15,744 bases of DNA, from contig JAITJT010000095.1 in NCBI GenBank assembly GCA_031278795.1, positions 1 through 15,744 on the forward strand. Direction: 5' to 3'. The notes beneath the pieces were generated by a model. That model saw only the letters and a program-made list of their open reading frames with translations. It ran no database searches and was not told where the DNA came from. The position numbers and the translations under genes are program-made. Positions 1,510-14,223 of the stretch are shown one piece after another. Each line of letters begins with the position of its first letter. Position 1 is the stretch's first letter. Source of the DNA: Deltaproteobacteria bacterium (GTDB lineage: Bacteria > Desulfobacterota > Desulfarculia > Adiutricales > Adiutricaceae).

Positions 1510-1563
1510 TTAAAAAAATAATGATGCTGATCCCATATTTTTTTAATTTTTATAATGAGTTTT

Positions 1564-1568
1564 GGAGG
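1564..1568 (+). promoter_or_regulatory. Ribosome binding site that fixes the hppA start
   Basis: GGAGG lies 10 nt before the ATG at 1579. The in-frame ATG at 1555 lies upstream of this site and has no Shine-Dalgarno of its own, so translation should begin at 1579. Confidence 0.75.
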
Positions 1569-1578
1569 CTGGTTCTTT

Positions 1579-4113
1579 ATGCGCTGTAAACAAAGCTTCA
1601 AACTAAAACTATTTCTTTTCGCTAGCACCTTTCTCGCCCTTTCCTCTCTGAGCGCCTACGCGGCTTTCGCCAGCGAAGCCGATTTGAAGCTGCCTCAATT
1701 CAACCACACGCAGACAATAACCCTATCAATTGGGCTCATATTGTGCGTGTTTGGCTTCCTCTTCGGGGTATACCAATACTTCAGCATAAAAAAGATAAAA
1801 GCCCACGCCTCCATGCTGGACGTGGCGGCCACCATCTATGAAACCTGCAAGACCTACATGTACCAGCAGGCCCGCCTCCTCGTAATCCTCTTCATTTTCG
1901 TGGGAATCTGCATCGCCTTCTACTTCGCCGTGCTCCAGGCCACTCCCATAGTAAACGTCTTGTGGATCCTCTTCTGGACAATTATAGGCATTTTGGGCTC
2001 CTATAGCGTGGCTTTTTACGGCATGAGGGTCAACACCCTGGCCAACAGCCGCATGGCCTACCACTCCCTTTTTAAAAAGCCCCTCAAGTTCTGCTATATT
2101 CCCATGAATTCTGGCATGAGCATAGGGGTCTTCCTCATCTCACTGGAACTCTTCCTCATGCTCATCATCCTCTTGGTGATGAAGGACCTGGCCGGGCCCT
2201 GTTTCATAGGATTCGCCATAGGAGAGTCCCTGGGGGCCTCGGCCCTGAGGATAGCCGGTGGAATCTTCACTAAAATAGCCGACATAGGCTCGGATCTGAT
2301 GAAGATAGTCTTCAAGATTAAAGAGGACGACCCCAGAAACCCTGGGGTAATCGCCGACTGCACCGGCGACAACGCCGGCGACTCGGTGGGCCCCACGGCC
2401 GATGGATTCGAGACCTACGGCGTAACCGGTGTGGCCCTCATCACCTTCATCTCCCTGGCCGTGGGCCTAACCGCAACTGGGGATCTTTCCGGCAAGGAAC
2501 CCATCAAGAGCTGCCTACTCGCCTGGATCTTCACCATGGGCGTGCTCATGGTCATATCCTCGGTCATCTCCTTCTACATTAACAAAGTCTGGTGCAACTA
2601 CCGCTTCGGGAAGCTCCTCAAGTTCGATTTCGAGTCCCCCCTCACCTCCCTGGTCTGGATTGGCTCGATATTCTTCATAATCATCAACTTCATAGCCACC
2701 TACATAATCCTAGGCCCAGGCTCGCCCCTCCACGAGGTGGAGCCCAGGAGCTGGTGGATACTCGCTGGAATCCTAAGCTGCGGCACCCTGGGCGCGGCCC
2801 TCATCCCGGAGTTCACCAAGATCTTCACCTCCGGAAAATCCGGACACGTACTCGAGACCGTGGAGGCCTCCAAGGAGGGAGGGCCCTCGCTCAACATCCT
2901 GGCGGGCTTCATAGCTGGAAACTACTCGGCCTTCTGGATGGGCTTGGTCTTCTGCTTCCTCATGCTCCTGGCCTACCTCTTCTCCATCTGCGGCCTGGAT
3001 AAGCTCATGATCTACCCCTCGGTCTTCGCCTTTGGCCTGGTGGCCTTCGGCTTCCTCTCCATGGGCCCGGTGACCATAGCGGTGGACTCTTACGGCCCGG
3101 TCACGGACAACGCCCAGTCCGTCTACGAGCTGAGCCTCTTCGAGGAGATTCCCGGGATCGCCGAGGAGATGGAAAAGGAGCTGGGCGAGAAACCCGACTT
3201 CGAGCTGGCCCACTACTACCTGGAGGCCAATGACGGGGCCGGAAACACCTTCAAGGCCACGGCCAAGCCCGTGTTAATCGGGACAGCCGTGGTGGGCTCC
3301 ACCATCATGATCTTCTCCATCATCCTGGTGCTCCAGCAGGTCCTGGGGATTAAGGACATAACCTCCATCTTGAACCTCCTCAACCCCTTCACCCTGATGG
3401 GCTTCCTCTGCGGCGGGGCGGTCATCTACTGGTTCTCCGGAGCCGCCACCCAGGCGGTGGCGACCGGCGCCTACCGCGCCGTGGCCTTCATAAAAAACCA
3501 CATAGACCTAGACCCCAACGCCTCCAAGAGCGCGGCCCTGGAGAACTCCAAGGAGGTGGTGCGCATCTGCACCCTCTACGCCCAAAAGGGCATGTTCAAC
3601 GTATTCGTGGCTATCTTCTCCTTTGCCTTGGGTTTCGCCTTCATATCGAGCCCGGCCACAGGTAGCTCCAACGCCTCGGTTAGCTTCTTCATCTCCTATC
3701 TCATCTCCATAGCCTTCTTCGGGCTCTTCCAGGCCATTTTCATGGCCAACGCCGGAGGATCCTGGGACAACGCCAAAAAGGTGGTGGAGGTGGACCTCCA
3801 GCAGAAGGGCACACCCCTCCACGACGCCTCGGTCATTGGAGACACCGTGGGAGACCCCTTCAAGGACACCTCCTCGGTAGCCCTCAACCCCATAATCAAA
3901 TTCACGACTCTTTTCGGGATGTTGGCTTTGGAAATAGCCATTACGGACAATTTCCGCAACGTAGCCAAATATTTCGGAATCGCCTTCCTCATAGTGGCTC
4001 TTATCTTTGTCTACCGCTCCTTCTACTCCATGCGGATATCGTCTCTAACCGCCATAGATGAACAAGGAAAGGACGACAAGAAGAGCCCTCCGGAGGAACC
4101 GGCCAAGGCCTGA
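1579..4113 (+). CDS. hppA: Membrane-bound ion-translocating pyrophosphatase
   Basis: This integral membrane enzyme hydrolyses pyrophosphate and pumps H+ and/or Na+ across the membrane. It has 844 residues from the ATG chosen by its ribosome binding site. Residues 1-32 look like a cleavable signal segment (basic start, hydrophobic stretch, AYAAFA), and about 16 further hydrophobic segments follow. Active-site motifs are intact: EDDPRNP (249-255), GDNAGD (263-268) continuing as SVGPTADGFE (269-278), DSYGPVTDNA (503-512), NAGGSWDNAKK (724-734) and GDTVGDPFKDTSS (754-766). In the cation-selectivity motif GNTFKATAK (555-563), Lys559 occupies the position that is Ala in K+-dependent enzymes and Lys in K+-independent ones. 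The GDSVGPTADGFE version differs from the common GDCAGMAADLFE and resembles a Bacteroidetes-like branch as I recall it. The pumped ion is therefore undecided. The last 20 residues are a charged tail. Confidence 0.96.
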   Translation: MRCKQSFKLKLFLFASTFLALSSLSAYAAFASEADLKLPQFNHTQTITLSIGLILCVFGFLFGVYQYFSIKKIKAHASMLDVAATIYETCKTYMYQQARLLVILFIFVGICIAFYFAVLQATPIVNVLWILFWTIIGILGSYSVAFYGMRVNTLANSRMAYHSLFKKPLKFCYIPMNSGMSIGVFLISLELFLMLIILLVMKDLAGPCFIGFAIGESLGASALRIAGGIFTKIADIGSDLMKIVFKIKEDDPRNPGVIADCTGDNAGDSVGPTADGFETYGVTGVALITFISLAVGLTATGDLSGKEPIKSCLLAWIFTMGVLMVISSVISFYINKVWCNYRFGKLLKFDFESPLTSLVWIGSIFFIIINFIATYIILGPGSPLHEVEPRSWWILAGILSCGTLGAALIPEFTKIFTSGKSGHVLETVEASKEGGPSLNILAGFIAGNYSAFWMGLVFCFLMLLAYLFSICGLDKLMIYPSVFAFGLVAFGFLSMGPVTIAVDSYGPVTDNAQSVYELSLFEEIPGIAEEMEKELGEKPDFELAHYYLEANDGAGNTFKATAKPVLIGTAVVGSTIMIFSIILVLQQVLGIKDITSILNLLNPFTLMGFLCGGAVIYWFSGAATQAVATGAYRAVAFIKNHIDLDPNASKSAALENSKEVVRICTLYAQKGMFNVFVAIFSFALGFAFISSPATGSSNASVSFFISYLISIAFFGLFQAIFMANAGGSWDNAKKVVEVDLQQKGTPLHDASVIGDTVGDPFKDTSSVALNPIIKFTTLFGMLALEIAITDNFRNVAKYFGIAFLIVALIFVYRSFYSMRISSLTAIDEQGKDDKKSPPEEPAKA

Positions 4114-4188
4114 CCTTAGGCCTGAACGAGGCCTCGGCTCTCACTGCTTACGCCCAAGAACAACACAACATTTTTTTCCTTTCACTAG

Positions 4189-4222
4189 AAAACCCGCAGG
4201 GCTCCGTGTCCTGCGGGTTTTT
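4189..4222 (+). terminator. Intrinsic terminator between hppA and tlyA
   Basis: A perfect 12-bp stem (4189-4200 with 4210-4221) closes a 9-nt loop, and the right arm merges into a run of five T. It lies about 75 nt after the hppA stop, so it fits an hppA terminator. It ends only 18 nt before the tlyA ATG, so it is also in the tlyA leader. Confidence 0.85.
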
Positions 4223-4240
4223 CCTAAGGCGAGGCTCCCC

Positions 4241-4996
4241 ATGCCAAAAAAAATAAGGGCCGACGAGCTCCTAGTGAAGCTGGGCTTAGCCCCCACCCGC
4301 TCCCAGGCCCAGGCCCTCATCATGGCGGGACGCGTCCTTAAGGCCCAGGATCAGCCCGTTAAAAAGGCTGGAGAGCTCTTATTGGAAGATAGCCAACTTT
4401 GCCTCACCAAGGGCAAAACCTACGTCTCCAGGGGCGGCGAAAAACTCAAAGGCGCCTTAGAGGACCTGGAGATTGACGTTAGCGGTCTTATTTGCCTGGA
4501 CCTTGGGGCCTCCACCGGAGGCTTCACCGACTGTCTACTTAAGTCCGGGGCCCAGAGCGTCACCGCCGTGGACGTGGGAAAGGGCCTCATCCATCACTCG
4601 CTGAAGGAGGACCCCAGGGTCACCCTCATAGAGGGCGTAAACGCCAGAAACCTTGGCGATCTAGATATGGAGAGGGACTTACATGGCCCTTTCGATCTGG
4701 CGACCTTGGATCTCTCATTTATCTCACTTTCACTCATACTTCCAGTCACGGCAGAAGTGATGGGGCCAAGCTCCAAGATTCTGGCCATGGTGAAACCGCA
4801 GTTCGAGGTGGGTAAAGGCGAGGTGGGAAAGGGCGGCGTGGTGAGGGACGAAAAACTAATTGTTAGCGCAACTGAAAAGATAAAGGCCCTGGCACCCACT
4901 CTAAGACCCCCGTTTATAGCCAGCGGTTCCGCGCCCTCAAGGCTAAAGGGCCCCATGGGAAACCAGGAGATATTTGTTCTTATGGAGAGAGCCTAA
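4241..4996 (+). CDS. tlyA: TlyA-family rRNA 2'-O-methyltransferase (hemolysin A family)
   Basis: TlyA proteins transfer a methyl group from SAM to ribose 2'-OH of cytidines in 16S and/or 23S rRNA; some homologues were first described as haemolysins. The protein has 251 residues. An N-terminal S4 RNA-binding domain (about 5-65, RADELLVKLGLAPTRSQAQALI) is joined by TYVSRGGEKL (60-69) to an FtsJ-like Rossmann domain with SAM loop DLGASTGGFTD (87-97). The K-D-K-E catalytic tetrad can be assigned as Lys68, Asp157 (LDLSF), Lys185 (MVKPQFE) and Glu243 (NQEIFVL), close to the positions known in the mycobacterial enzyme. The frame is open upstream into hppA, but GAGG lies 6 nt before the ATG at 4241 and homology begins there. 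No convincing promoter is seen between the hppA stop and the terminator. Confidence 0.93.
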   Translation: MPKKIRADELLVKLGLAPTRSQAQALIMAGRVLKAQDQPVKKAGELLLEDSQLCLTKGKTYVSRGGEKLKGALEDLEIDVSGLICLDLGASTGGFTDCLLKSGAQSVTAVDVGKGLIHHSLKEDPRVTLIEGVNARNLGDLDMERDLHGPFDLATLDLSFISLSLILPVTAEVMGPSSKILAMVKPQFEVGKGEVGKGGVVRDEKLIVSATEKIKALAPTLRPPFIASGSAPSRLKGPMGNQEIFVLMERA

Positions 4997-5588
4997 GAAA
5001 TAATTGTTTTCCATTCCCAAAAATTTAAAAAGAGCTCTTTTGAACTACATAGGCATCCTCCGGATAAAAAATGCCCATGAAAAACTAAATATGGCTAAGG
5101 CCTGAGGGGAATGTTTCAGAGAACTCTTTGTGTAGTATAAATAATTAAAATTTTCATTACAAATCCAAATAACACCACGCATTAGCGTAGTTAAAAAAAA
5201 ACTCATATTGTGTGTTGCTATCGAAGTGCAAGTAGTGAACTATTATGAGCAGTGACTACCGCTAAATTTAAGAAAAATAATTTTTTAAAAGATATATTAA
5301 AACACTTGCTTTCATAAAAATAATAGCTAAAATATAGTTTTAGAAGATAGGGCTTTGTACTTTTCCTCCCCGTGCTCTTTAATTTTAAGGCCCTAAGCAT
5401 CAGAACCAATAAAACCTAAAGATTAAGGAAAAGAGGAAAAATTTGTAAAAATTATACATTTACTACGTTTAAAAATTTATTACTATTCAAGTCCTACAAG
5501 CCCTAGAGCTACTTTTTAATAAGCTTTTACCGCTCTTATTTTTACTCCTTTTATTTTTACTTTTAGTTTGCCGAGAGGTTTTATCCAA
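4997..5588. other. AT-rich intergenic region, no gene recognised
   Basis: This 592-nt stretch is strongly AT-rich and has no credible coding frame on either strand. It contains a perfect 14-bp palindrome (AAAAGAGCTCTTTT, 5028-5041) shortly after the tlyA stop and an imperfect 15-bp direct repeat near its right end. I see no clear terminator for tlyA and no strong promoter for the following gene. Confidence 0.6.
5536..5565. repeat. Imperfect direct repeat, two copies with 15-bp period
   Basis: The 11-mer TTATTTTTACT occurs at 5536-5546 and 5551-5561, exactly 15 bp apart, just ahead of the broken gene. T-rich composition makes chance plausible. Confidence 0.35.
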
Positions 5589-6526
5589 ATGTCACATTTT
5601 TACGCATGTGCACTGGGCACCTCGTATTTGATCAAAGGCTCGAATATTGCTCTCTACATACTAGCCAAGATGTATGAGGGCACGATCCTGGGAGATATTT
5701 GTTTTGTCCCAAAGGATCACCCATGGAGAAAAAAGACAATTCTCAAAGCCATCGAGTTTCCCACTCTAGATCTATATGATCAAACCTACACTAGAATGAT
5801 CTTATATCTGGAAGGAAACTATATTTTAATTGTTAAATTGATAAAAGATCAACAAATTGGCCCAAATGATCTTAGAAAATGGGTAAAAGAAAGTGCCCAT
5901 CTACGATATATTTGGGAGGAAGAAAATGACACTTCCGTTAATTCGAAAAAGACTCCAATGATAAGAACCCTCATTGTAGTTGGAAACAGAATTAAAGACG
6001 AACTCACGCTATCATATGATGGATTGGACTATGATATCAAAGCCAGAACAAAATACCTAAAAAGTATGGATCGAGAGGGAATATTTTCCAAAATAGAGAA
6101 GAAGCTAACATCAAAAGATGAACTCTGCGTTACGGATTTTACCTCTCTCACTATACTCCCCCTATGCGGACCAACTCCAGGCTTGGATACTAAATTATTA
6201 AAAAAATGCTTTAACTTGGCCTAAGATATTCTTCAAAAGGAACGCTGAAGTTGAAGAAAACTTGATGCTTCAAAAGCTTTATGCAAATATGATGATAATC
6301 ATCTATGGCAACATGTTTAACAAAGTAGATTGGGAGTATCTCTCTACTACAAAAGATTTGGAACCCGTTGCCATATTCATAAGTAAGCTTAGCCTATTTT
6401 GACGGTATTCTGGATGGGATTAAATCTTTTTGGAAAAAAGAGATTCTTATGATTATTCTAGAAAACCTTGACGGCCTTAAAATCCGGAAACATTTGCCAA
6501 AAATAAAAAACACAATCCATACCTAA
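5589..6526 (+). pseudogene. Unrecognised gene broken by two frameshifts
   Basis: The first segment (5589-6224, 211 residues) starts at ATG 5589, with GAGAGG 10 nt upstream, and stops at TAA 6222. The +1 frame then reads 59 further codons (6223-6399) with protein-like composition (RNAEVEENLMLQKLYANMM) to a TGA at 6400. A third frame gives 41 more codons (6401-6523; DGILDGIKSFWKKEIL) to TAA 6524. The three pieces abut and look like one original protein of about 310 residues. A run of seven A (6200-6206) just before the first break is a natural slippage site. I do not recognise the family: it is soluble, charged and alpha/beta-like, with no signal peptide. Its AT-rich composition and codon use differ sharply from its neighbours, suggesting acquisition from elsewhere. 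Sequencing or assembly error in the A-run, or programmed frameshifting, are alternatives for the first break. Confidence 0.6.
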
Positions 6527-9040: not shown

Positions 9041-9068
9041 TTGCAAATTATCCAACATAGTGTATACT
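9041..9068 (+). promoter_or_regulatory. Putative sigma70 promoter of the Hsp70 cassette
   Basis: TTGCAA (9041-9046), a 16-nt spacer and TATACT (9063-9068). The -10 matches five of six consensus bases. Transcription would start near 9075, about 100 nt before the leader ORF. I see neither a heat-shock sigma32-type promoter nor a CIRCE inverted repeat. Confidence 0.5.
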
Positions 9069-9176
9069 CCGAGTCGTCTCATATTTTATATGGTAGTTTT
9101 TAGGAAAAAATCGCTGGGCCCTAGCCATGGAGGCACTAAGCTCAGGCCAGATTTTCACCTATAGAAAGAGGGCAAA

Positions 9177-9221
9177 ATGTCAAATCTAAAAGCGTCCCTT
9201 AAACTAAGTGTCGCCCCATGA
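9177..9221 (+). CDS. 14-codon leader ORF overlapping the GrpE-like gene
   Basis: The frame reads MSNLKASLKLSVAP and stops at TGA 9219-9221, which overlaps the ATG (9218-9220) of the next gene as ATGA. AAGAGGG (9166-9172) stands 4 nt before its ATG, whereas the GrpE-like ATG has no good ribosome binding site of its own. Ribosomes ending the leader could therefore restart on the downstream gene. The peptide has no recognisable function and no run of one amino acid, so amino-acid attenuation is unlikely. Confidence 0.5.
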   Translation: MSNLKASLKLSVAP

Positions 9222-9631
9222 GCGACTCCCATTACAAAGCTCCAAGTCTTACGACCCTGGAGAACTCCCTCATCCGCATAGCGGTTGAGACCTGGCGCTT
9301 CGACAAGGTCTTCAAGCGCGTTGTGAACAAACTGGAAAGAACGGACCGGAGCCGCTATGAAGGCCACTTCAACTGGCTCCTCAAAGAGGTGCAAAACGCC
9401 TTGGAACAATCCGGGCTCTACGTCAACAACCTGGAGGGCCTGCCCTTTGACCCCGGGCTTCCGGCCACCCCCCTCAACCTAGACGAGTTCACGGAGGAAG
9501 ACGAGCTCTTTGTGGACACTATGATAGAGCCGGTCATCATGAACGAGCGCGGGATTGTGAAGACGGGCACCATCACCTTGAGAAAGGCCCTCGAAGACGA
9601 GCTTCCCCCAGAGGAGGACGCCGATTCCTAA
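9218..9631 (+). CDS. Short GrpE-like nucleotide exchange factor
   Basis: GrpE releases ADP from Hsp70 so that ATP can rebind. This protein has only 137 residues against roughly 180-200 in usual GrpE. Residues 14-64 are helical with a heptad-like pattern. Residues 66-125 align by eye with the GrpE beta head: G-x7-G-LPFDPGLPATPL (66-86), an acidic stretch, then VDTMIEPVIMNERGIVKTGTITLRKA (99-124), matching the family order G..FDP..h.....V......G......LRPA. The long N-terminal coiled coil of DnaK-partner GrpE is almost absent. It sits 67 nt upstream of a divergent Hsp70, which strongly supports the assignment. The C-terminus is acidic (EDELPPEEDAD). The start depends on coupling with the leader ORF. 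The family match is moderate and from pattern recognition only. Confidence 0.75.
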   Translation: MSDSHYKAPSLTTLENSLIRIAVETWRFDKVFKRVVNKLERTDRSRYEGHFNWLLKEVQNALEQSGLYVNNLEGLPFDPGLPATPLNLDEFTEEDELFVDTMIEPVIMNERGIVKTGTITLRKALEDELPPEEDADS

Positions 9632-9698
9632 CAATTAAAGAAAGCGAACTAAAAATCAAAAACAAAATAATTTACTTCCTAAGAGGAGAACAAATTAG

Positions 9699-12194
9699 AT
9701 GAAGAATTACCTTGGGATTGACCTGGGCACCACCAATAGCACCATATGCTCCTACAACGGCGTGGAGACACGCATCTGGAAGAGCCCGGAACACAGTGAG
9801 GTGACCCCGTCAGCCATCTATATAGATAAACTTGGCAACAAATACGTGGGCCAAAGGGCCTATGACCTCTTCCCCCAAAACCCGGACAACGCGGCCACGC
9901 TCTTCAAGAGGCTCATGGGCACGAGCACGCCCATCCTCCTCAAGGGCGGGGCTCTCACCATGACTCCGGAGCAGTGCTCCAGTGAGGTCCTGAAGCTTCT
10001 CTTTGGATACCTCCCCAAGGAGTTAAAGAACCACGAGGATGCCGGAACGGTGGTAACCATTCCGGCCGCCTTCAACCAGATGCAAAAGAACGCCACAGTG
10101 GAGGCCGCGGAAAAGGCGGGCATCGGAGAGGTCGCCCTCATGCAGGAGCCCGTGGCCGCGGTCATAAGCGTCATGCGCGAAATGAAGAAAGACGGGATGT
10201 TTTTGGTCTATGACCTGGGTGGCGGCACCTTGGACATCGCCATCGCCGAGAGCATAGGCGGAAAGGTCTCGCTTTTGGCCCATGGCGGCATCGCCATGTG
10301 CGGGGGAAGGGACTTTGACCGCCTCCTGGTGGACAAGCTGGTCTTACCATGGCTTAGGGACAAGTTCTCGCTTGCGGAGGACTTCACCCAGGACCACCGC
10401 TACCGGATACTAATGAGGATGGCGGCCTGGGCCGCGGAAAAGGCGAAGATTGCCCTCTCCCGGAGAAAAGAATCTTTGATCTACCTAAGCGAGACCGAGG
10501 CCGCCGCCAAGGATCTCAAAGGGACCGACATCTTCTTAGATGTCGCCCTCACCAGGGAGAGCTTCAACTCCCTAATCGCCAAGCGCGTGGAGGAGACAAT
10601 TGAGGCCGCGCGGGAGACCTTGTCCAAAGCCGGCCTCCAAAACACCGACATGGAGCAGATGGTCTTCGTGGGAGGGCCCACCATCTATAAGCCCTTAAGG
10701 GACAAGGTAGCGCGCGCTCTGGGTATCAAAGCCCAGAGCTCGGTAAATCCCCTGACCGCCGTGGCCGAAGGGGCGGCCATCTTCGCCGAGTCCATAGATT
10801 GGCGCACAGTGGAGAGGTCCCGCAAAGAAAACGTGGGAAAAATCGCCCCCCTAGGAGAGCTTCCCCTAGCTTTCACCTTCATAGCCCGCACCCCCAAGCT
10901 CCAGGGGAGGGTAATGGTGAAGCACTCCGGAGAGGTCCCGGAGGGTCTGGAGTTCCAGATAGATTCCCGCACAAGCGGCTGGACATCCGGAAAGAGGCCC
11001 TTGACGGATGAAACCTCGGTTGTCTTAACGCTCGCTGAAAAGGGCGAAAACCTCTTTGACGTCAAGGTCTTTGACCAGAGCGGGAACAGCCTCATGCTCA
11101 AGGAGAGCTCCTTTTCCATCACCCGCACGGCCGCAACCGTTGAGGCCATACCCGCCTCCTACTCCATCTGCATAGAGGTCCTAGATAAGCTGGGCGGAGA
11201 GTCGGTTCCGGCCTATCTGGTGAAAGCGGGCGATGCCCTGCCGGTGAAAAACAGCCTTAGCTTCAAGGCGGGGCTATCCCTAAGGGCCAGGCAATTTGGG
11301 GCCATCAACTTCAAGATCTGGGAAGGGGAAATCGAGAGCCCCATCACTGACAACCGTTTCGTGGGCATGCTCCAGATCCGGGGCACGGATTTCGATTACG
11401 GCATCATCCCCGTGGGAGCGGATCTCAAATGCGACTACGAGATCCTGGACAGCGGCTATATCTCGCTCTCCGTCTCCATTCCCGCCATAAGTGGCACCTT
11501 CAAGTCCGAAAAAAACTTCTACTCCCGCCAGGAGGGGCAAAAAGATTACACCAACTCCGCCCTCTCCATAGTAAGAGAGGCCAAGGAAACCTTGGAGCGC
11601 ATAAATGATATGGAGGGAATCGTGGCGGATCCCAAGCTGGAACAGGCCCGCCAGAAGCTAAGGACCTCCAGCCAACTGGACCCCAAGGAAAGCGATCCGG
11701 AAAGGGCCCAGGAGGCTATGGAAGATGTACTCAAGGCCAAGAAGCTCATGGCCTTGGCCAGGAAAGAAAACCTCAAGGAAGTGCGTCAGCGCGAGCTGGA
11801 CAACCACATCATGTATTTTAATCAGAAAATTCGCTTGTTAGCCACCAACGAGGATATTTCTACCTTCGAGAACATCAAGAAGGCGGCCCAGAGGGCGACT
11901 GAGCTAGCTGACAACGATTTCGAGGTCCTCTATGACACTTTGAGACAGTTTTGCTTCAATATCCTGTGGCGCTACGACTGGTACGTCTACGTTCTCTTGG
12001 AGGGCTTCGAGATGTCGCCCGAGCGCTTCAAGGACCAAAAAAAGTACCAGCAGCTCATGAGGCTCGGCCAAAGCTACAAAAGCGAAAGAGACATCCTCAA
12101 GTTGAGGCAGGTGGTCTCCAGCCTCCTCAGCATGAGCTACAGGTTTCCGGAAGAGAAAGTCATGTTCAACAAAGTGAACATCGTGAGAGGCTGA
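9699..12194 (+). CDS. Divergent Hsp70-family chaperone with extra beta domain
   Basis: This is an ATP-dependent chaperone of 831 residues, about 200 longer than DnaK. The nucleotide-binding domain (1-370) has phosphate-1 DLGTTNS (8-14), Lys70 in FKRLMG, EP (150-151, catalytic Glu side), phosphate-2 YDLGGGTLDIA (171-181) and the adenosine motif VGGPTIYKPL (324-333). NPLTAVAEGAA (350-360) lacks the Asp-Glu of DnaK NPDEAVAIGAA. The DVLLLDVT-type linker is missing; about 110 beta-rich residues (372-484) occupy that place. A substrate-binding beta domain follows at about 485-605, recognisable by order and spacing (ICIEVLDKLGG, FKIWEGE, GTDFDYGIIPVGADLKCDYEI as separate landmarks). A long, charged helical region runs from 615 to 831 and lacks a DnaK-type tail. 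AGAGGAG lies 10 nt before the ATG. It is distinct from housekeeping DnaK and probably serves a dedicated client. Confidence 0.95.
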   Translation: MKNYLGIDLGTTNSTICSYNGVETRIWKSPEHSEVTPSAIYIDKLGNKYVGQRAYDLFPQNPDNAATLFKRLMGTSTPILLKGGALTMTPEQCSSEVLKLLFGYLPKELKNHEDAGTVVTIPAAFNQMQKNATVEAAEKAGIGEVALMQEPVAAVISVMREMKKDGMFLVYDLGGGTLDIAIAESIGGKVSLLAHGGIAMCGGRDFDRLLVDKLVLPWLRDKFSLAEDFTQDHRYRILMRMAAWAAEKAKIALSRRKESLIYLSETEAAAKDLKGTDIFLDVALTRESFNSLIAKRVEETIEAARETLSKAGLQNTDMEQMVFVGGPTIYKPLRDKVARALGIKAQSSVNPLTAVAEGAAIFAESIDWRTVERSRKENVGKIAPLGELPLAFTFIARTPKLQGRVMVKHSGEVPEGLEFQIDSRTSGWTSGKRPLTDETSVVLTLAEKGENLFDVKVFDQSGNSLMLKESSFSITRTAATVEAIPASYSICIEVLDKLGGESVPAYLVKAGDALPVKNSLSFKAGLSLRARQFGAINFKIWEGEIESPITDNRFVGMLQIRGTDFDYGIIPVGADLKCDYEILDSGYISLSVSIPAISGTFKSEKNFYSRQEGQKDYTNSALSIVREAKETLERINDMEGIVADPKLEQARQKLRTSSQLDPKESDPERAQEAMEDVLKAKKLMALARKENLKEVRQRELDNHIMYFNQKIRLLATNEDISTFENIKKAAQRATELADNDFEVLYDTLRQFCFNILWRYDWYVYVLLEGFEMSPERFKDQKKYQQLMRLGQSYKSERDILKLRQVVSSLLSMSYRFPEEKVMFNKVNIVRG

Positions 12195-12240
12195 TGCATT
12201 TACCGTATAATGAGATGCTTTTGCCGTATAATGAGATGCT
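12193..12240. repeat. 21-bp tandem repeat over the Hsp70 stop codon
   Basis: GATGC-N5-CCGTATAATGA occurs twice with an exact 21-bp period (12193-12213, 12214-12234), and a third partial GATGCT follows. The 17-bp core CCGTATAATGAGATGCT is identical at 12203-12219 and 12224-12240. Each unit contains a perfect -10 hexamer TATAAT. The first unit overlaps the Hsp70 TGA at 12192-12194. Confidence 0.9.
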
Positions 12241-12369
12241 CTTAGAGATCCTTAAAAGCCCCACTAAAGCGCCATTTCCCCCTAACTTCCCCCGATAACT
12301 CATAAGCATATTGCAACTAAGAGCTAAGAACACAAAAAAGCTAAAAACAATCTTAAAAAAAGGTAATTT

Positions 12370-14064
12370 ATGGATCTTTTTGATAATCCCTTTTACATCC
12401 TGGGCGCGAGCTTCCAAAGCAGCCGAAAGGATATCCTGAATCTAGCCGAGGAGCGCTCTTTACTTACCGAGTCTCAAAAGGAGTGCGAGGAGGCCAGAAG
12501 CTCTCTCACCAACCCCAGGAAGAGGCTCACGGCCGAGGCCTTCTATCTCCCGGGCATGAAAGAGTCTAGGGTGCTTAATATTCTAGATACCCTCTCAACA
12601 TCTCCGGAGCTAGTGGCCTCTGACCCTTTAATCCCCAGATTCAGTAAGCCCAATGTCTACATGGCGGTCCTCAAACGCCTGACAAATCCCTCACCCGAGG
12701 AGGTGGCCTGGTGGATCTTCAAAGTAGCCAAGGCCTTTGAGAACCTAGACGCGAAAGACCTCATGACGCTTCTAAACAAGAAACGCGAGCTGTCTAAGTT
12801 TCCGGAGATAAGTGAGCTTAGGTCAGTGGAGGCCACCTTGGAGGAGCTCAGAGCCTATTACCGCATGTCCACAGGTGAGGCCATGAAGAACCTGGGGCCG
12901 GAGGGATTCATCGAATCCATGAACATCCTCGCTATCAAGGCCACCAAGAACGGCCAAAGGGTGGCCCCGGTTTTGGTTTCCGATCTGGCGGCCCTCTACC
13001 AGATGGGGACGCAGCCGCCCTGGCAAAGGGAGAAGGGGAAATTAGAGGAGCTCATCAAGACCATCTACGCCAACGCCCGCGGCCTGGAGGACAACTTTGC
13101 CTTTGAGCCCCTCTTGGAGGATCTCAGAAAGTGCGTCACAAACATGTACAAAATCCTCAAACCCTTACAGCTCATAGACAAGTCCAGGGGCAATATCTCC
13201 CAAGAACTCGTGGATACTTTTTATGATATAAGGGTTATGGCCATTTCCATGCACAACGACTATGCGCGCACTGATTTATCCATTAAGATCTCCAAGATCT
13301 TAGTACCTTTGGCCGAAGATTCCCAGGACTTGATGCAAATGATCCAAGATGACCTGGAGGCCTCAGAGGAGATAGCCGAGGAAACGGATATCATGACAGG
13401 CTCCATCTCGGCGGATGATTCCACAAAAGACCTCAAAGGTAAGACCATACGCATTCTGGCCGGGGAAGACTTGGACTCGGAATTGATTCTTTCCCCAACC
13501 TTCCTCAGATGGCAAGATGAGGACGTCTTTTATGACTCGGTTCTGGGCTTCCGCTTCGGACTACCTACCAATTCCTTGTTGAACCTAAACCATGACGATG
13601 CGGATCTAAAGGATAGCCTCTTTCAAATAACACTTACGACCGAGTCCTCCGAGACGACAATCCCGGTTCTCGGCCCCATGGTTTTCCAAAAAATCATAAA
13701 GATCCTCGATCTCTATCTGGTGGACCTCTTGATGGTGAAATTACTAGAAGATCTCAAAGATGGCCGCAAGATAAACTTCCTCATGGCCGTCGTGAGCGAC
13801 AAGGGCATAATGGCCAAGCACAAGAAGGTCTTCAGCAGCTCGCCGGGCTTCATCCGCTGGACGGACGCCAATATCTGGCATGAGGCTGGAGCCCTGTGCG
13901 TAGGCGTCAAGGGAATCAGGCAGCCCCTCATCATGTTCGCCTACCAGATGGAGAACAACATCAAGGTCGTGGAGAAGGCCGTTTCGCTACTCCAGGAATA
14001 CGACCTGGAAAGGCTCTCGGATTTGTTGGAAGTCCTGGGTCTGGAAGGAGAGGAGGAGGTGTAG
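12370..14064 (+). CDS. J-like cochaperone candidate lacking HPD, with duplicated C-terminal module
   Basis: A 564-residue soluble protein of no named family that I can recall. Residues 1-62 read like a J-domain: NPFYILGASFQSSRKDILNLAEERSLL matches helix I and II spacing, and ECEEARSSLTNPRKRLTAEAFY matches the helix III and SDPxKRxxYD region. The HPD tripeptide between them, needed to trigger Hsp70 ATPase, is absent (SLLTESQK instead). Residues 65-330 are mainly helical. Residues 330-350 are acidic. Two C-terminal modules share FxRWxD (378-383, FLRWQD; 494-499, FIRWTD), each preceded by SP and followed by an aromatic-rich segment, suggesting an internal duplication 116 residues apart. There is no signal or membrane segment. 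AAAGG lies 6 nt before the ATG. It follows the Hsp70 by 175 nt in the same direction, so a cochaperone or client-adaptor role is inferred. Confidence 0.7.
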   Translation: MDLFDNPFYILGASFQSSRKDILNLAEERSLLTESQKECEEARSSLTNPRKRLTAEAFYLPGMKESRVLNILDTLSTSPELVASDPLIPRFSKPNVYMAVLKRLTNPSPEEVAWWIFKVAKAFENLDAKDLMTLLNKKRELSKFPEISELRSVEATLEELRAYYRMSTGEAMKNLGPEGFIESMNILAIKATKNGQRVAPVLVSDLAALYQMGTQPPWQREKGKLEELIKTIYANARGLEDNFAFEPLLEDLRKCVTNMYKILKPLQLIDKSRGNISQELVDTFYDIRVMAISMHNDYARTDLSIKISKILVPLAEDSQDLMQMIQDDLEASEEIAEETDIMTGSISADDSTKDLKGKTIRILAGEDLDSELILSPTFLRWQDEDVFYDSVLGFRFGLPTNSLLNLNHDDADLKDSLFQITLTTESSETTIPVLGPMVFQKIIKILDLYLVDLLMVKLLEDLKDGRKINFLMAVVSDKGIMAKHKKVFSSSPGFIRWTDANIWHEAGALCVGVKGIRQPLIMFAYQMENNIKVVEKAVSLLQEYDLERLSDLLEVLGLEGEEEV

Positions 14065-14200: not shown

Positions 14201-14223
14201 AGCCCGGGGCTTTGCCCCGGGCT
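14201..14223. terminator. GC-rich terminator hairpin between the J-like gene and rpmA
   Basis: The 10-bp stem AGCCCGGGGC / GCCCCGGGCT (14201-14210 with 14214-14223) closes a 3-nt loop. On the minus strand it is followed by ATTTTCG, giving a modest T-tract for rpmA; on the plus strand only TTAAACATT follows. It probably stops both convergent transcripts. Confidence 0.75.

What the first reader, a model, noticed from the sequence alone, without database searches (positions are those of the whole stretch)
9041..14064. Self-contained specialised Hsp70 cassette: mini-GrpE, divergent Hsp70, HPD-less J-like protein
Seen: three same-strand genes behind one promoter candidate, encoding a short GrpE-like head, an 831-residue Hsp70 and a 564-residue protein with a J-like N-terminus. 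Known: DnaK needs GrpE and a J-protein. Inferred: the three form a parallel chaperone machine, with all three parts altered together, dedicated to an unknown client. No client gene is adjacent.
Basis: partly seen in the sequence, partly recalled or inferred. Interest (0 to 1): 0.8.

Follow-up and report, generated by a model that had tools for sequence, protein, structure and literature searches.

The report
Dedicated Hsp70 chaperone cassette, minimal form
Three neighbouring genes encode a private version of the Hsp70 protein-handling machine that recurs across many bacteria, usually with a fourth motor protein and membrane proteins that share a short address tag, and it seems to use a different on-switch from ordinary Hsp70s.

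Summary
In detail: a GrpE-like gene (9218-9631), an 831-aa Hsp70 (9699-12194) and a 564-aa J-like protein without HPD (12370-14064). The same three families sit together in 68 of 84 sources; of the other 16, 15 are cut by a contig end and one looks decayed.

The trio is usually not the whole system. In 64 of the 68 a one-domain AAA ATPase lies with it, and 59 of those 64 also encode tag-family proteins, mostly membrane-anchored, many beginning with about K-GFAGLSSLVSDV. The window has the rare form without ATPase and tagged proteins (also L061, L062, L078, L178).

New support for altered coupling: the DnaK arginine that binds HPD is Ala in 64 of 67 cassette Hsp70s and Arg in 16 of 16 canonical DnaKs; ATPase residues are kept. 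GrpE kinship is supported by fold. A J-domain was not shown.

Most likely it is a mobile, dedicated Hsp70 machine with its own exchange factor and an HPD-independent partner, normally coupled to an AAA motor acting on tagged envelope proteins. Ten paper searches found no description.

The parts
9218..9631 (+). GrpE-like protein, 137 aa: two helices (11-36, 41-64) and a beta head (68-123); probable nucleotide exchange factor
9699..12194 (+). Divergent Hsp70, 831 aa: conserved ATPase domain 1-365, an extra segment about 368-487 where the usual linker would be, a weak match to the substrate-binding beta domain about 489-586, then a long C-terminal part
   Evidence: PF00012 5-364; DnaK 2v7y, E 1.5e-47; residue comparison; weak profile match to canonical substrate domain, P 0.006, probability 6%
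12370..14064 (+). HPD-less J-like protein, 564 aa: N-terminal helices 7-11, 19-32, 36-47, 49-58; long helical middle; PH-like beta domain about 355-452 and a second beta-rich part after 470
   Evidence: consensus match only
12183..12211 (+). second promoter-like site (10 of 12) in front of the third gene
   Evidence: consensus match only
12195..12369 (+). 175-nt gap where relatives carry the AAA ATPase gene; a 21-nt tandem direct repeat (12193-12234) runs into it; no recognisable AAA remnant
   Evidence: (six-frame against the AAA profile: best E 0.67, negative score)

Best explanation
The three genes are the minimal form of a dedicated, horizontally spread Hsp70 machine. The Hsp70 keeps the ATPase. 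The small protein exchanges its nucleotide as GrpE does. The third protein sits in the J-protein position and recruits or activates the Hsp70 without an HPD motif, at a surface that has changed in step (HPD lost; its arginine partner Arg167 of DnaK replaced by Ala). In most relatives the Hsp70 hands substrates to, or works beside, a one-domain AAA ATPase. The substrates or docking partners are then membrane-anchored proteins that carry a shared cytoplasmic N-terminal tag (K-GFAGLSSLVSDV). The window form has no AAA ATPase and no tagged protein in the sequence available, so it would act on other clients or through a host unfoldase. Shown: conservation and linkage, ATPase residues, loss of HPD with loss of Arg167, the tag and its confinement to the cassette in the genomes searched; GrpE fold by prediction. 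Inferred: physical interaction, activation, hand-over to AAA, membrane topology, the tag as address, envelope proteins as clients.
For: Linkage: 68 of 84 sources hold all three families; 64 of the 68 also hold the AAA, and in 62 of 64 the order GrpE-like, Hsp70, AAA, J-like on one strand is kept. Whole-genome samples: of 669 genomes searched with the GrpE-like profile 7 have it, and in 6 of the 7 cassette genes follow it (two of the seven are the genomes on which the samples were centred, known beforehand). ATPase residues D8, T11, K70, E171, D194, T199 are kept in 67 of 67 rows save one gapped row at the first three. DnaK R167 site: Ala 64 of 67, Arg 16 of 16 in canonical DnaKs; N170 site: Gln 67 of 67 against Asn 16 of 16. 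HPD Asp is reported to bind R167 and Q378, and HPD His the linker L391 (PMC8215388, passages). No HPD in 90 of 90 J-like frames. GrpE fold. Tag: 72 open frames in 84 sources, 64 of the 72 with a membrane-spanning-like stretch behind it; in 21 whole genomes 20 tag matches, all 20 inside a cassette locus by coordinates. Two natural fusions of the J-like protein with the membrane protein family, the main match starting behind the tag (P0011, P0014). Spread across phyla: cassette Hsp70 identity exceeds canonical DnaK identity in 15 of 15 pairs of six genomes; plasmid and viral-contig copies.
Confidence: 0.6

Rival explanations
1. The third protein is not a J-protein at all but a client-side or membrane-side scaffold (helical rod with PH-like domains), and the Hsp70 is activated by substrate or by the AAA ATPase alone.
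For: A canonical J-domain profile matches no J-like frame better than E 9.9, profile comparison aligns 16 columns only, no J-domain chain is in the fold rows shown, PH-like domains are. Fusions join it directly to the membrane protein.
Against: The N-terminal helix register (7-11, 19-32, 36-47, 49-58) resembles a J-domain with the HPD loop shortened (comparison with DnaJ is from memory), and the ARSSLTNPRKRL stretch aligns with the AYEVLSDPEKRA stretch of J-domains.
Confidence: 0.35
2. The window cassette is a decaying remnant: after loss of the AAA gene the remaining three genes are on the way out and do nothing specific.
For: The window Hsp70 and L078 have long branches (1.11 and 1.26); the AAA and tagged proteins are missing; a 175-nt gap with a tandem repeat lies where the AAA gene would be.
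Against: All three reading frames are intact and full length, catalytic residues are kept, and AAA-less trios recur in Synergistaceae, Poribacteria and another sampled genome (L061, L062, L078, L178). The cassette AAA is not elsewhere in the three AAA-less genomes searched.
Confidence: 0.15
3. It is an anti-phage or mobile-element stress system in which the Hsp70 set controls a membrane effector (the tagged proteins).
For: Patchy distribution (about 1% of sampled genomes), plasmid copies two of which lie beside Tn7-like TnsE, viral-contig copies, Hsp70 and GrpE genes reported in GTPase-centred conflict systems (PMC7159879, passages).
Against: PADLOC finds no defence family in the three window proteins or three tagged proteins, and in the AAA ATPase mainly similarity of the AAA domain to IetA and TRIP13. 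No nuclease or toxin family was seen in the ten tagged proteins scanned.
Confidence: 0.2

Closest known systems
DnaK-DnaJ-GrpE machine
   Same: Same three roles by family: Hsp70 ATPase with its catalytic residues, GrpE fold, a partner in the J position
   Different: No HPD, Arg167 and Asn170 sites changed, usual linker replaced by an extra segment, 831 aa, short GrpE, one locus, present beside the canonical set
HscC with DjlB/DjlC, and HscA with HscB (specialised bacterial Hsp70 systems; PMC8215388, passages)
   Same: Specialised Hsp70 with its own partner beside DnaK
   Different: HscC and HscA are shorter (550-620 aa) and reported to lack the GrpE signature; here a GrpE-like gene goes with the set and the partner lacks HPD
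DnaK with ClpB disaggregase (recalled)
   Same: Hsp70 next to an AAA motor in most relatives
   Different: The motor has a single AAA domain nearest the PAN/FtsH/CDC48 type, not the two of ClpB, and the window lacks it
GAP1-N2 GTPase neighbourhoods with Hsp70, GrpE and DnaJ-domain fusions (Kaur et al. 2020, PMC7159879, passages)
   Same: Hsp70 and GrpE genes set apart in a locus with a J-type partner
   Different: Centred on a GTPase in actinobacteria and firmicutes; here an AAA ATPase, mostly in proteobacteria, no standard DnaJ domain

Membership tests
Hsp70 | Nucleotide-binding domain with catalytic residues (DnaK D8, T11, K70, E171, D194, T199) | tested here: met
   PF00012 E 1.6e-52; all six kept in the window and in 66-67 of 67 cassette rows, the one exception being a gap. 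Which residues are catalytic is recalled, K70 also
Hsp70 | Canonical substrate-binding domain behind the ATPase domain | tested here: inconclusive
   PF00012 stops at residue 364; weak profile match of 85 columns to canonical substrate domains, probability 6%, P 0.006
DnaK (canonical) | prok_dnaK cut-off 822.55 bits | tested here: not met
   193.9 bits
DnaK (canonical) | HPD-binding arginine 167 | tested here: not met
   Ala in window, 64 of 67 in family; Arg in 16 of 16 canonical DnaKs
GrpE | PF01025 at its gathering cut-off (25.8 bits) | tested here: not met
   No PF01025 match for the window protein. 22 of 46 relatives match weakly, best E 0.0044 (bits not shown there)
GrpE | GrpE fold (helices plus beta head) | tested here: met
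J-domain proteins | HPD motif | tested here: not met
   HPD nowhere in 90 of 90 J-like frames
J-domain proteins | Match to a J-domain profile | tested here: not met
   No match for the window protein in Pfam; profile of 20 canonical J-domains: one of 90 J-like frames at E 9.9, no better. In one search PF00226 is not among the 25 of 97 families listed, which leaves at most 2 of 64 members
J-domain proteins | J-domain fold | tested here: inconclusive
   No J-domain among the rows shown, but that part of the model was barely tested and the domain was not folded alone
HscA | HscA family cut-off; length 600-620 aa | tested here: not met
   HscA models 188.6 of 620 and 178.1 of 708.55 bits; 831 aa against the length reported
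HscC | Length 550-580 aa | tested here: not met
   831 aa against the length reported; no HscC model appeared among the NCBIfam matches
ClpB-type bichaperone | Hsp100 with two AAA domains in the locus | tested here: not met
   No AAA profile match in the window; the relatives' ATPase, scanned in L002, has one PF00004 domain
GAP1-N2 GTPase conflict system | GAP1-N2 GTPase in the neighbourhood | not tested
   No profile for it was run
Three-gene system | The three families co-occur | tested here: met
   67 and 66 of 68 with room upstream; 6 of 7 GrpE-like carriers among 669 genomes; one solitary case

The most novel reading that the evidence does not exclude
A tag-addressed, HPD-independent Hsp70/AAA machine for the bacterial envelope: the Hsp70 has swapped the J-protein switch for a new one, and the cassette marks its own membrane proteins with a short N-terminal address. 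In the fusions the address is gone because the J-like protein is joined directly. The window would be the core without the motor.
Probability: 0.3. Interest if true: 0.85.

Novelty: new variant of a known kind. Interest (0 to 1): 0.62.

Why it matters
Changing HPD is reported to abolish J-domain stimulation of Hsp70 in every system tested (PMC8215388, passages). A widespread Hsp70 family whose partner lost HPD and which lost the arginine partner, yet kept a full ATPase and its own exchange factor, would show how an Hsp70 can be driven another way. The shared tag on neighbouring membrane proteins gives a ready, testable client or docking signal, and the AAA-less window form suggests the core can stand without the motor.

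Tried and rejected
Tried and led nowhere: E. coli genomes hold no close copy (near mode only). Phage records match the Hsp70 over no more than 43% of its length in the ten rows shown, the ATPase domain; none of 43 reaches 80%. Rfam found nothing in the window. PDB sequence search with the GrpE-like and J-like profiles gave nothing of note. PADLOC gave only AAA-type similarity.

J-domain by profile: 16 columns locally, nothing of weight globally; canonical J-domain profile against all frames, nothing better than E 9.9 on a J-like frame. The PDB fold list for the J-like model has no J-domain chain in its 50 shown rows. This is absence from a list, not disproof.

AAA remnant in the window gap: none. 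AAA elsewhere in the three AAA-less genomes searched: only partial matches over about residues 237-468, E 9e-23 to 2e-29. Origin of the window: no whole genome held; not identified.

Considered and rejected: that the three genes are a chance neighbourhood; that the Hsp70 is a plain DnaK paralogue; that the tag is a general genome feature.

Counting notes: the F3 profile contains the tag, so the F3 label of tagged frames is partly circular; the independent test is, with the tag removed. One search printed 60 of 64 for tag-family proteins; one search showed that one of these (L065) falls only on the J-like frame, so I give 59. The Fisher value treats related loci as independent and adds L178 by hand, so I do not rely on it. 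One search tested HPD in 77 N-termini and left 13 out; one search repeated it on all 90 frames. One search's PF01025 search took 17 genomes and one search's DnaK search 15 of those behind the loci, not all. For the residue comparison 67 of 73 Hsp70-bearing sources were long enough. In one search, 12 of the 17 GrpE loci given gave a canonical GrpE sequence by the motif used. In one search the tree is a quick one and the place of the window is unsure.
Full report
Observation. Flanks look unrelated: a pyridoxamine kinase-type gene upstream and ribosomal protein L21 downstream, both on the other strand. Of the three only the Hsp70 is known to Pfam or NCBIfam, and only by its ATPase domain.

A conserved set. 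A protein search with the third gene gave 18 proteins, the query included (only the best 7998 candidates were scored). Its profile found 92 encoding stretches among 142 candidates in one genome per species; 79 loci were kept, and plasmid records gave 4 more. I built profiles of the neighbouring families from these loci and searched all six frames of the 84 sources (window included). The J-like family is in 84 by construction, Hsp70 in 73, AAA in 72, GrpE-like in 68. Many contigs are cut: of the 16 sources without the full trio, 15 have the J-like frame within 4.9 kb of a contig end and the other is L022. Among the 68 sources with at least 4.6 kb upstream of the J-like gene (L047 added by name, its set being divergent), Hsp70 is in 67, GrpE-like in 66 and AAA in 65; the exceptions are L022, L026, L062, L078 and the window. 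In L026 the contig begins inside the Hsp70 gene, and in L022 only a short AAA piece remains.

The usual form. 68 sources have all three families; 64 of them also have the AAA ATPase, and in 62 of these 64 the order GrpE-like, Hsp70, AAA, J-like is kept on one strand (exceptions L047, L069). The AAA protein, scanned in L002, has one classical AAA domain, closest by profile to PAN, FtsH and CDC48. A family of proteins with a membrane segment (F3) lies between AAA and J-like or after J-like (37 and 31 cases, 1 elsewhere).

The tag. F3 proteins begin with a motif near K-GFAGLSSLVSDV; G, F, G and S are invariant in 30 aligned examples that I chose from the 72 frames. The same motif opens proteins of other families in the same loci, F7, F10 and an SH3-domain protein. 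With the tag cut off, F10 does not match F3 or F7 (profile probability below 1%), but F3 and F7 still match over 98 columns at 95%. 72 open frames carry the motif pattern; 64 of the 72 have a membrane-spanning-like stretch behind it, median 56 residues on. Behind it the modules vary: peptidoglycan-binding, SH3, TPR and an EGF-like match in the ten proteins and in L002; four of the ten had no match. In 21 whole genomes the tag profile gives 20 matches in 15 genomes, and by coordinates all 20 lie within the cassette loci (contigs bear numbers only, so the match is by position). Six genomes gave none: the three AAA-less ones and those of L053, L069 and L065. L053 and L069 have tag-like starts that differ.

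Fusions. Two database proteins join the J-like N-terminal part to the F3 family: P0014 (F3 match E 7.5e-37) and P0011 (4.4e-25), with the main F3 match beginning at profile position 92 and 106 (a weak one at 72 in P0011). The tag sits near the start of F3 proteins, so these matches begin behind it. I saw no tag in P0014 by reading it. If the tag normally brings the membrane protein to the machine, a fusion would not need it. That is inference.

The window form. The window, L061, L062 and L078 have the trio without AAA, and none has a tag-family protein. Of the 64 AAA-bearing trios 59 do; one search counted 60, but the L065 match falls on its J-like frame. Whole-genome search of the genomes of L061, L062 and L078 finds no cassette AAA elsewhere, only partial matches of E 9e-23 to 2e-29. 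Another AAA-less trio appeared in sampled genome G450 (L178), its J-like frame shorter than usual. On a quick Hsp70 tree the AAA-less rows need two changes; branches are long and the place of the window is unsure. In the window the place of the AAA gene is a 175-nt gap with a 21-nt tandem repeat and no remnant.

Do the families occur apart? With the GrpE-like profile, 3 of 274 genomes of one class and 4 of 395 of one phylum matched. Of these seven (two of which, G004 and G006, are the known genomes on which the samples were centred), G004, G006, G143 and G484 have the full set, G450 the trio, G385 GrpE-like and Hsp70 on a 3.2-kb contig, and G220 the GrpE-like gene with no partner in the 18 kb fetched. 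With the J-like profile 3 of the 274 matched: G006, G143 and G072, the last a decayed copy with a tag-family protein near a contig end. G072 has no GrpE-like match.

Parallel to the canonical set, and mobile. Canonical GrpE, DnaJ-domain and DnaK genes occur elsewhere in all genomes tested (17, 13 and 15). Cassette Hsp70s are more alike between distant hosts than canonical DnaKs in 15 of 15 pairs of six genomes. Four of the six are MAGs, so contamination is possible there; the pair of isolates, Desulfopila and Geomonas, gives 91% against 74%. Copies lie on plasmids of Aeromonas, Shewanella, Vibrio and Polaromonas, two beside TnsE, and in 4 viral contigs, all 4 with the AAA.

In print. Ten literature searches found no description of this set in their listings. 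Most subscription papers are not in the library; the survey of bacterial J-proteins by Barriot et al. cited in PMC8215388 I did not see. A review names three prokaryotic Hsp70 types, DnaK, HscA and HscC (PMC8215388, passages). The nearest described arrangement is the GAP1-N2 GTPase neighbourhood with Hsp70, GrpE and DnaJ fusions (PMC7159879, passages). Myxococcus DnaK2 has its own exchange factor in a two-gene operon (PMC11019930, passages). CoCoNuT systems carry other Hsp70-like proteins (PMC11090510, passages). The Hsp70 family itself is common in databases (1297 proteins at E 1e-5 by the C-terminal part, 120 listed) under names such as 'Hsp70 family protein' and 'molecular chaperone DnaK'.

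Verdict. A real, recurring, dedicated Hsp70 set.

Noticed in passing
window 12193-12234: A 21-nt tandem direct repeat with a TATAAT box at the gap where relatives carry the AAA gene.
   Followed up: partly
window 14201-14223: A 10-pair GC-rich hairpin between the cassette and the L21 gene, terminator-like on the minus strand.
   Followed up: no
window 5568-6224: A 218-aa ORF with a TTG start and no Pfam match.
   Followed up: no
window 1555-4113 and 4058-4996: A membrane pyrophosphatase of the sodium-translocating type next to a TlyA-type rRNA methyltransferase.
   Followed up: no
L001 1-1246, L002 1-1383: Tn7-like TnsE annotated upstream of the cassette on an Aeromonas and a Shewanella plasmid.
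   Followed up: partly
L174 6352-6828: A GrpE-like gene of this family without Hsp70 or J-like gene nearby, followed by large uncharacterised genes including one with a P-loop-like start.
   Followed up: partly
P0009, P0012 N-termini: Some J-like proteins carry an extra N-terminal part with two CxxC pairs, a likely zinc ribbon.
   Followed up: no
P0011, P0014: Natural fusions of the J-like protein with the tagged membrane protein family, in place of the PH-like part.
   Followed up: yes
L042 6572-14790: One locus has two J-like genes and three tagged proteins.
   Followed up: no
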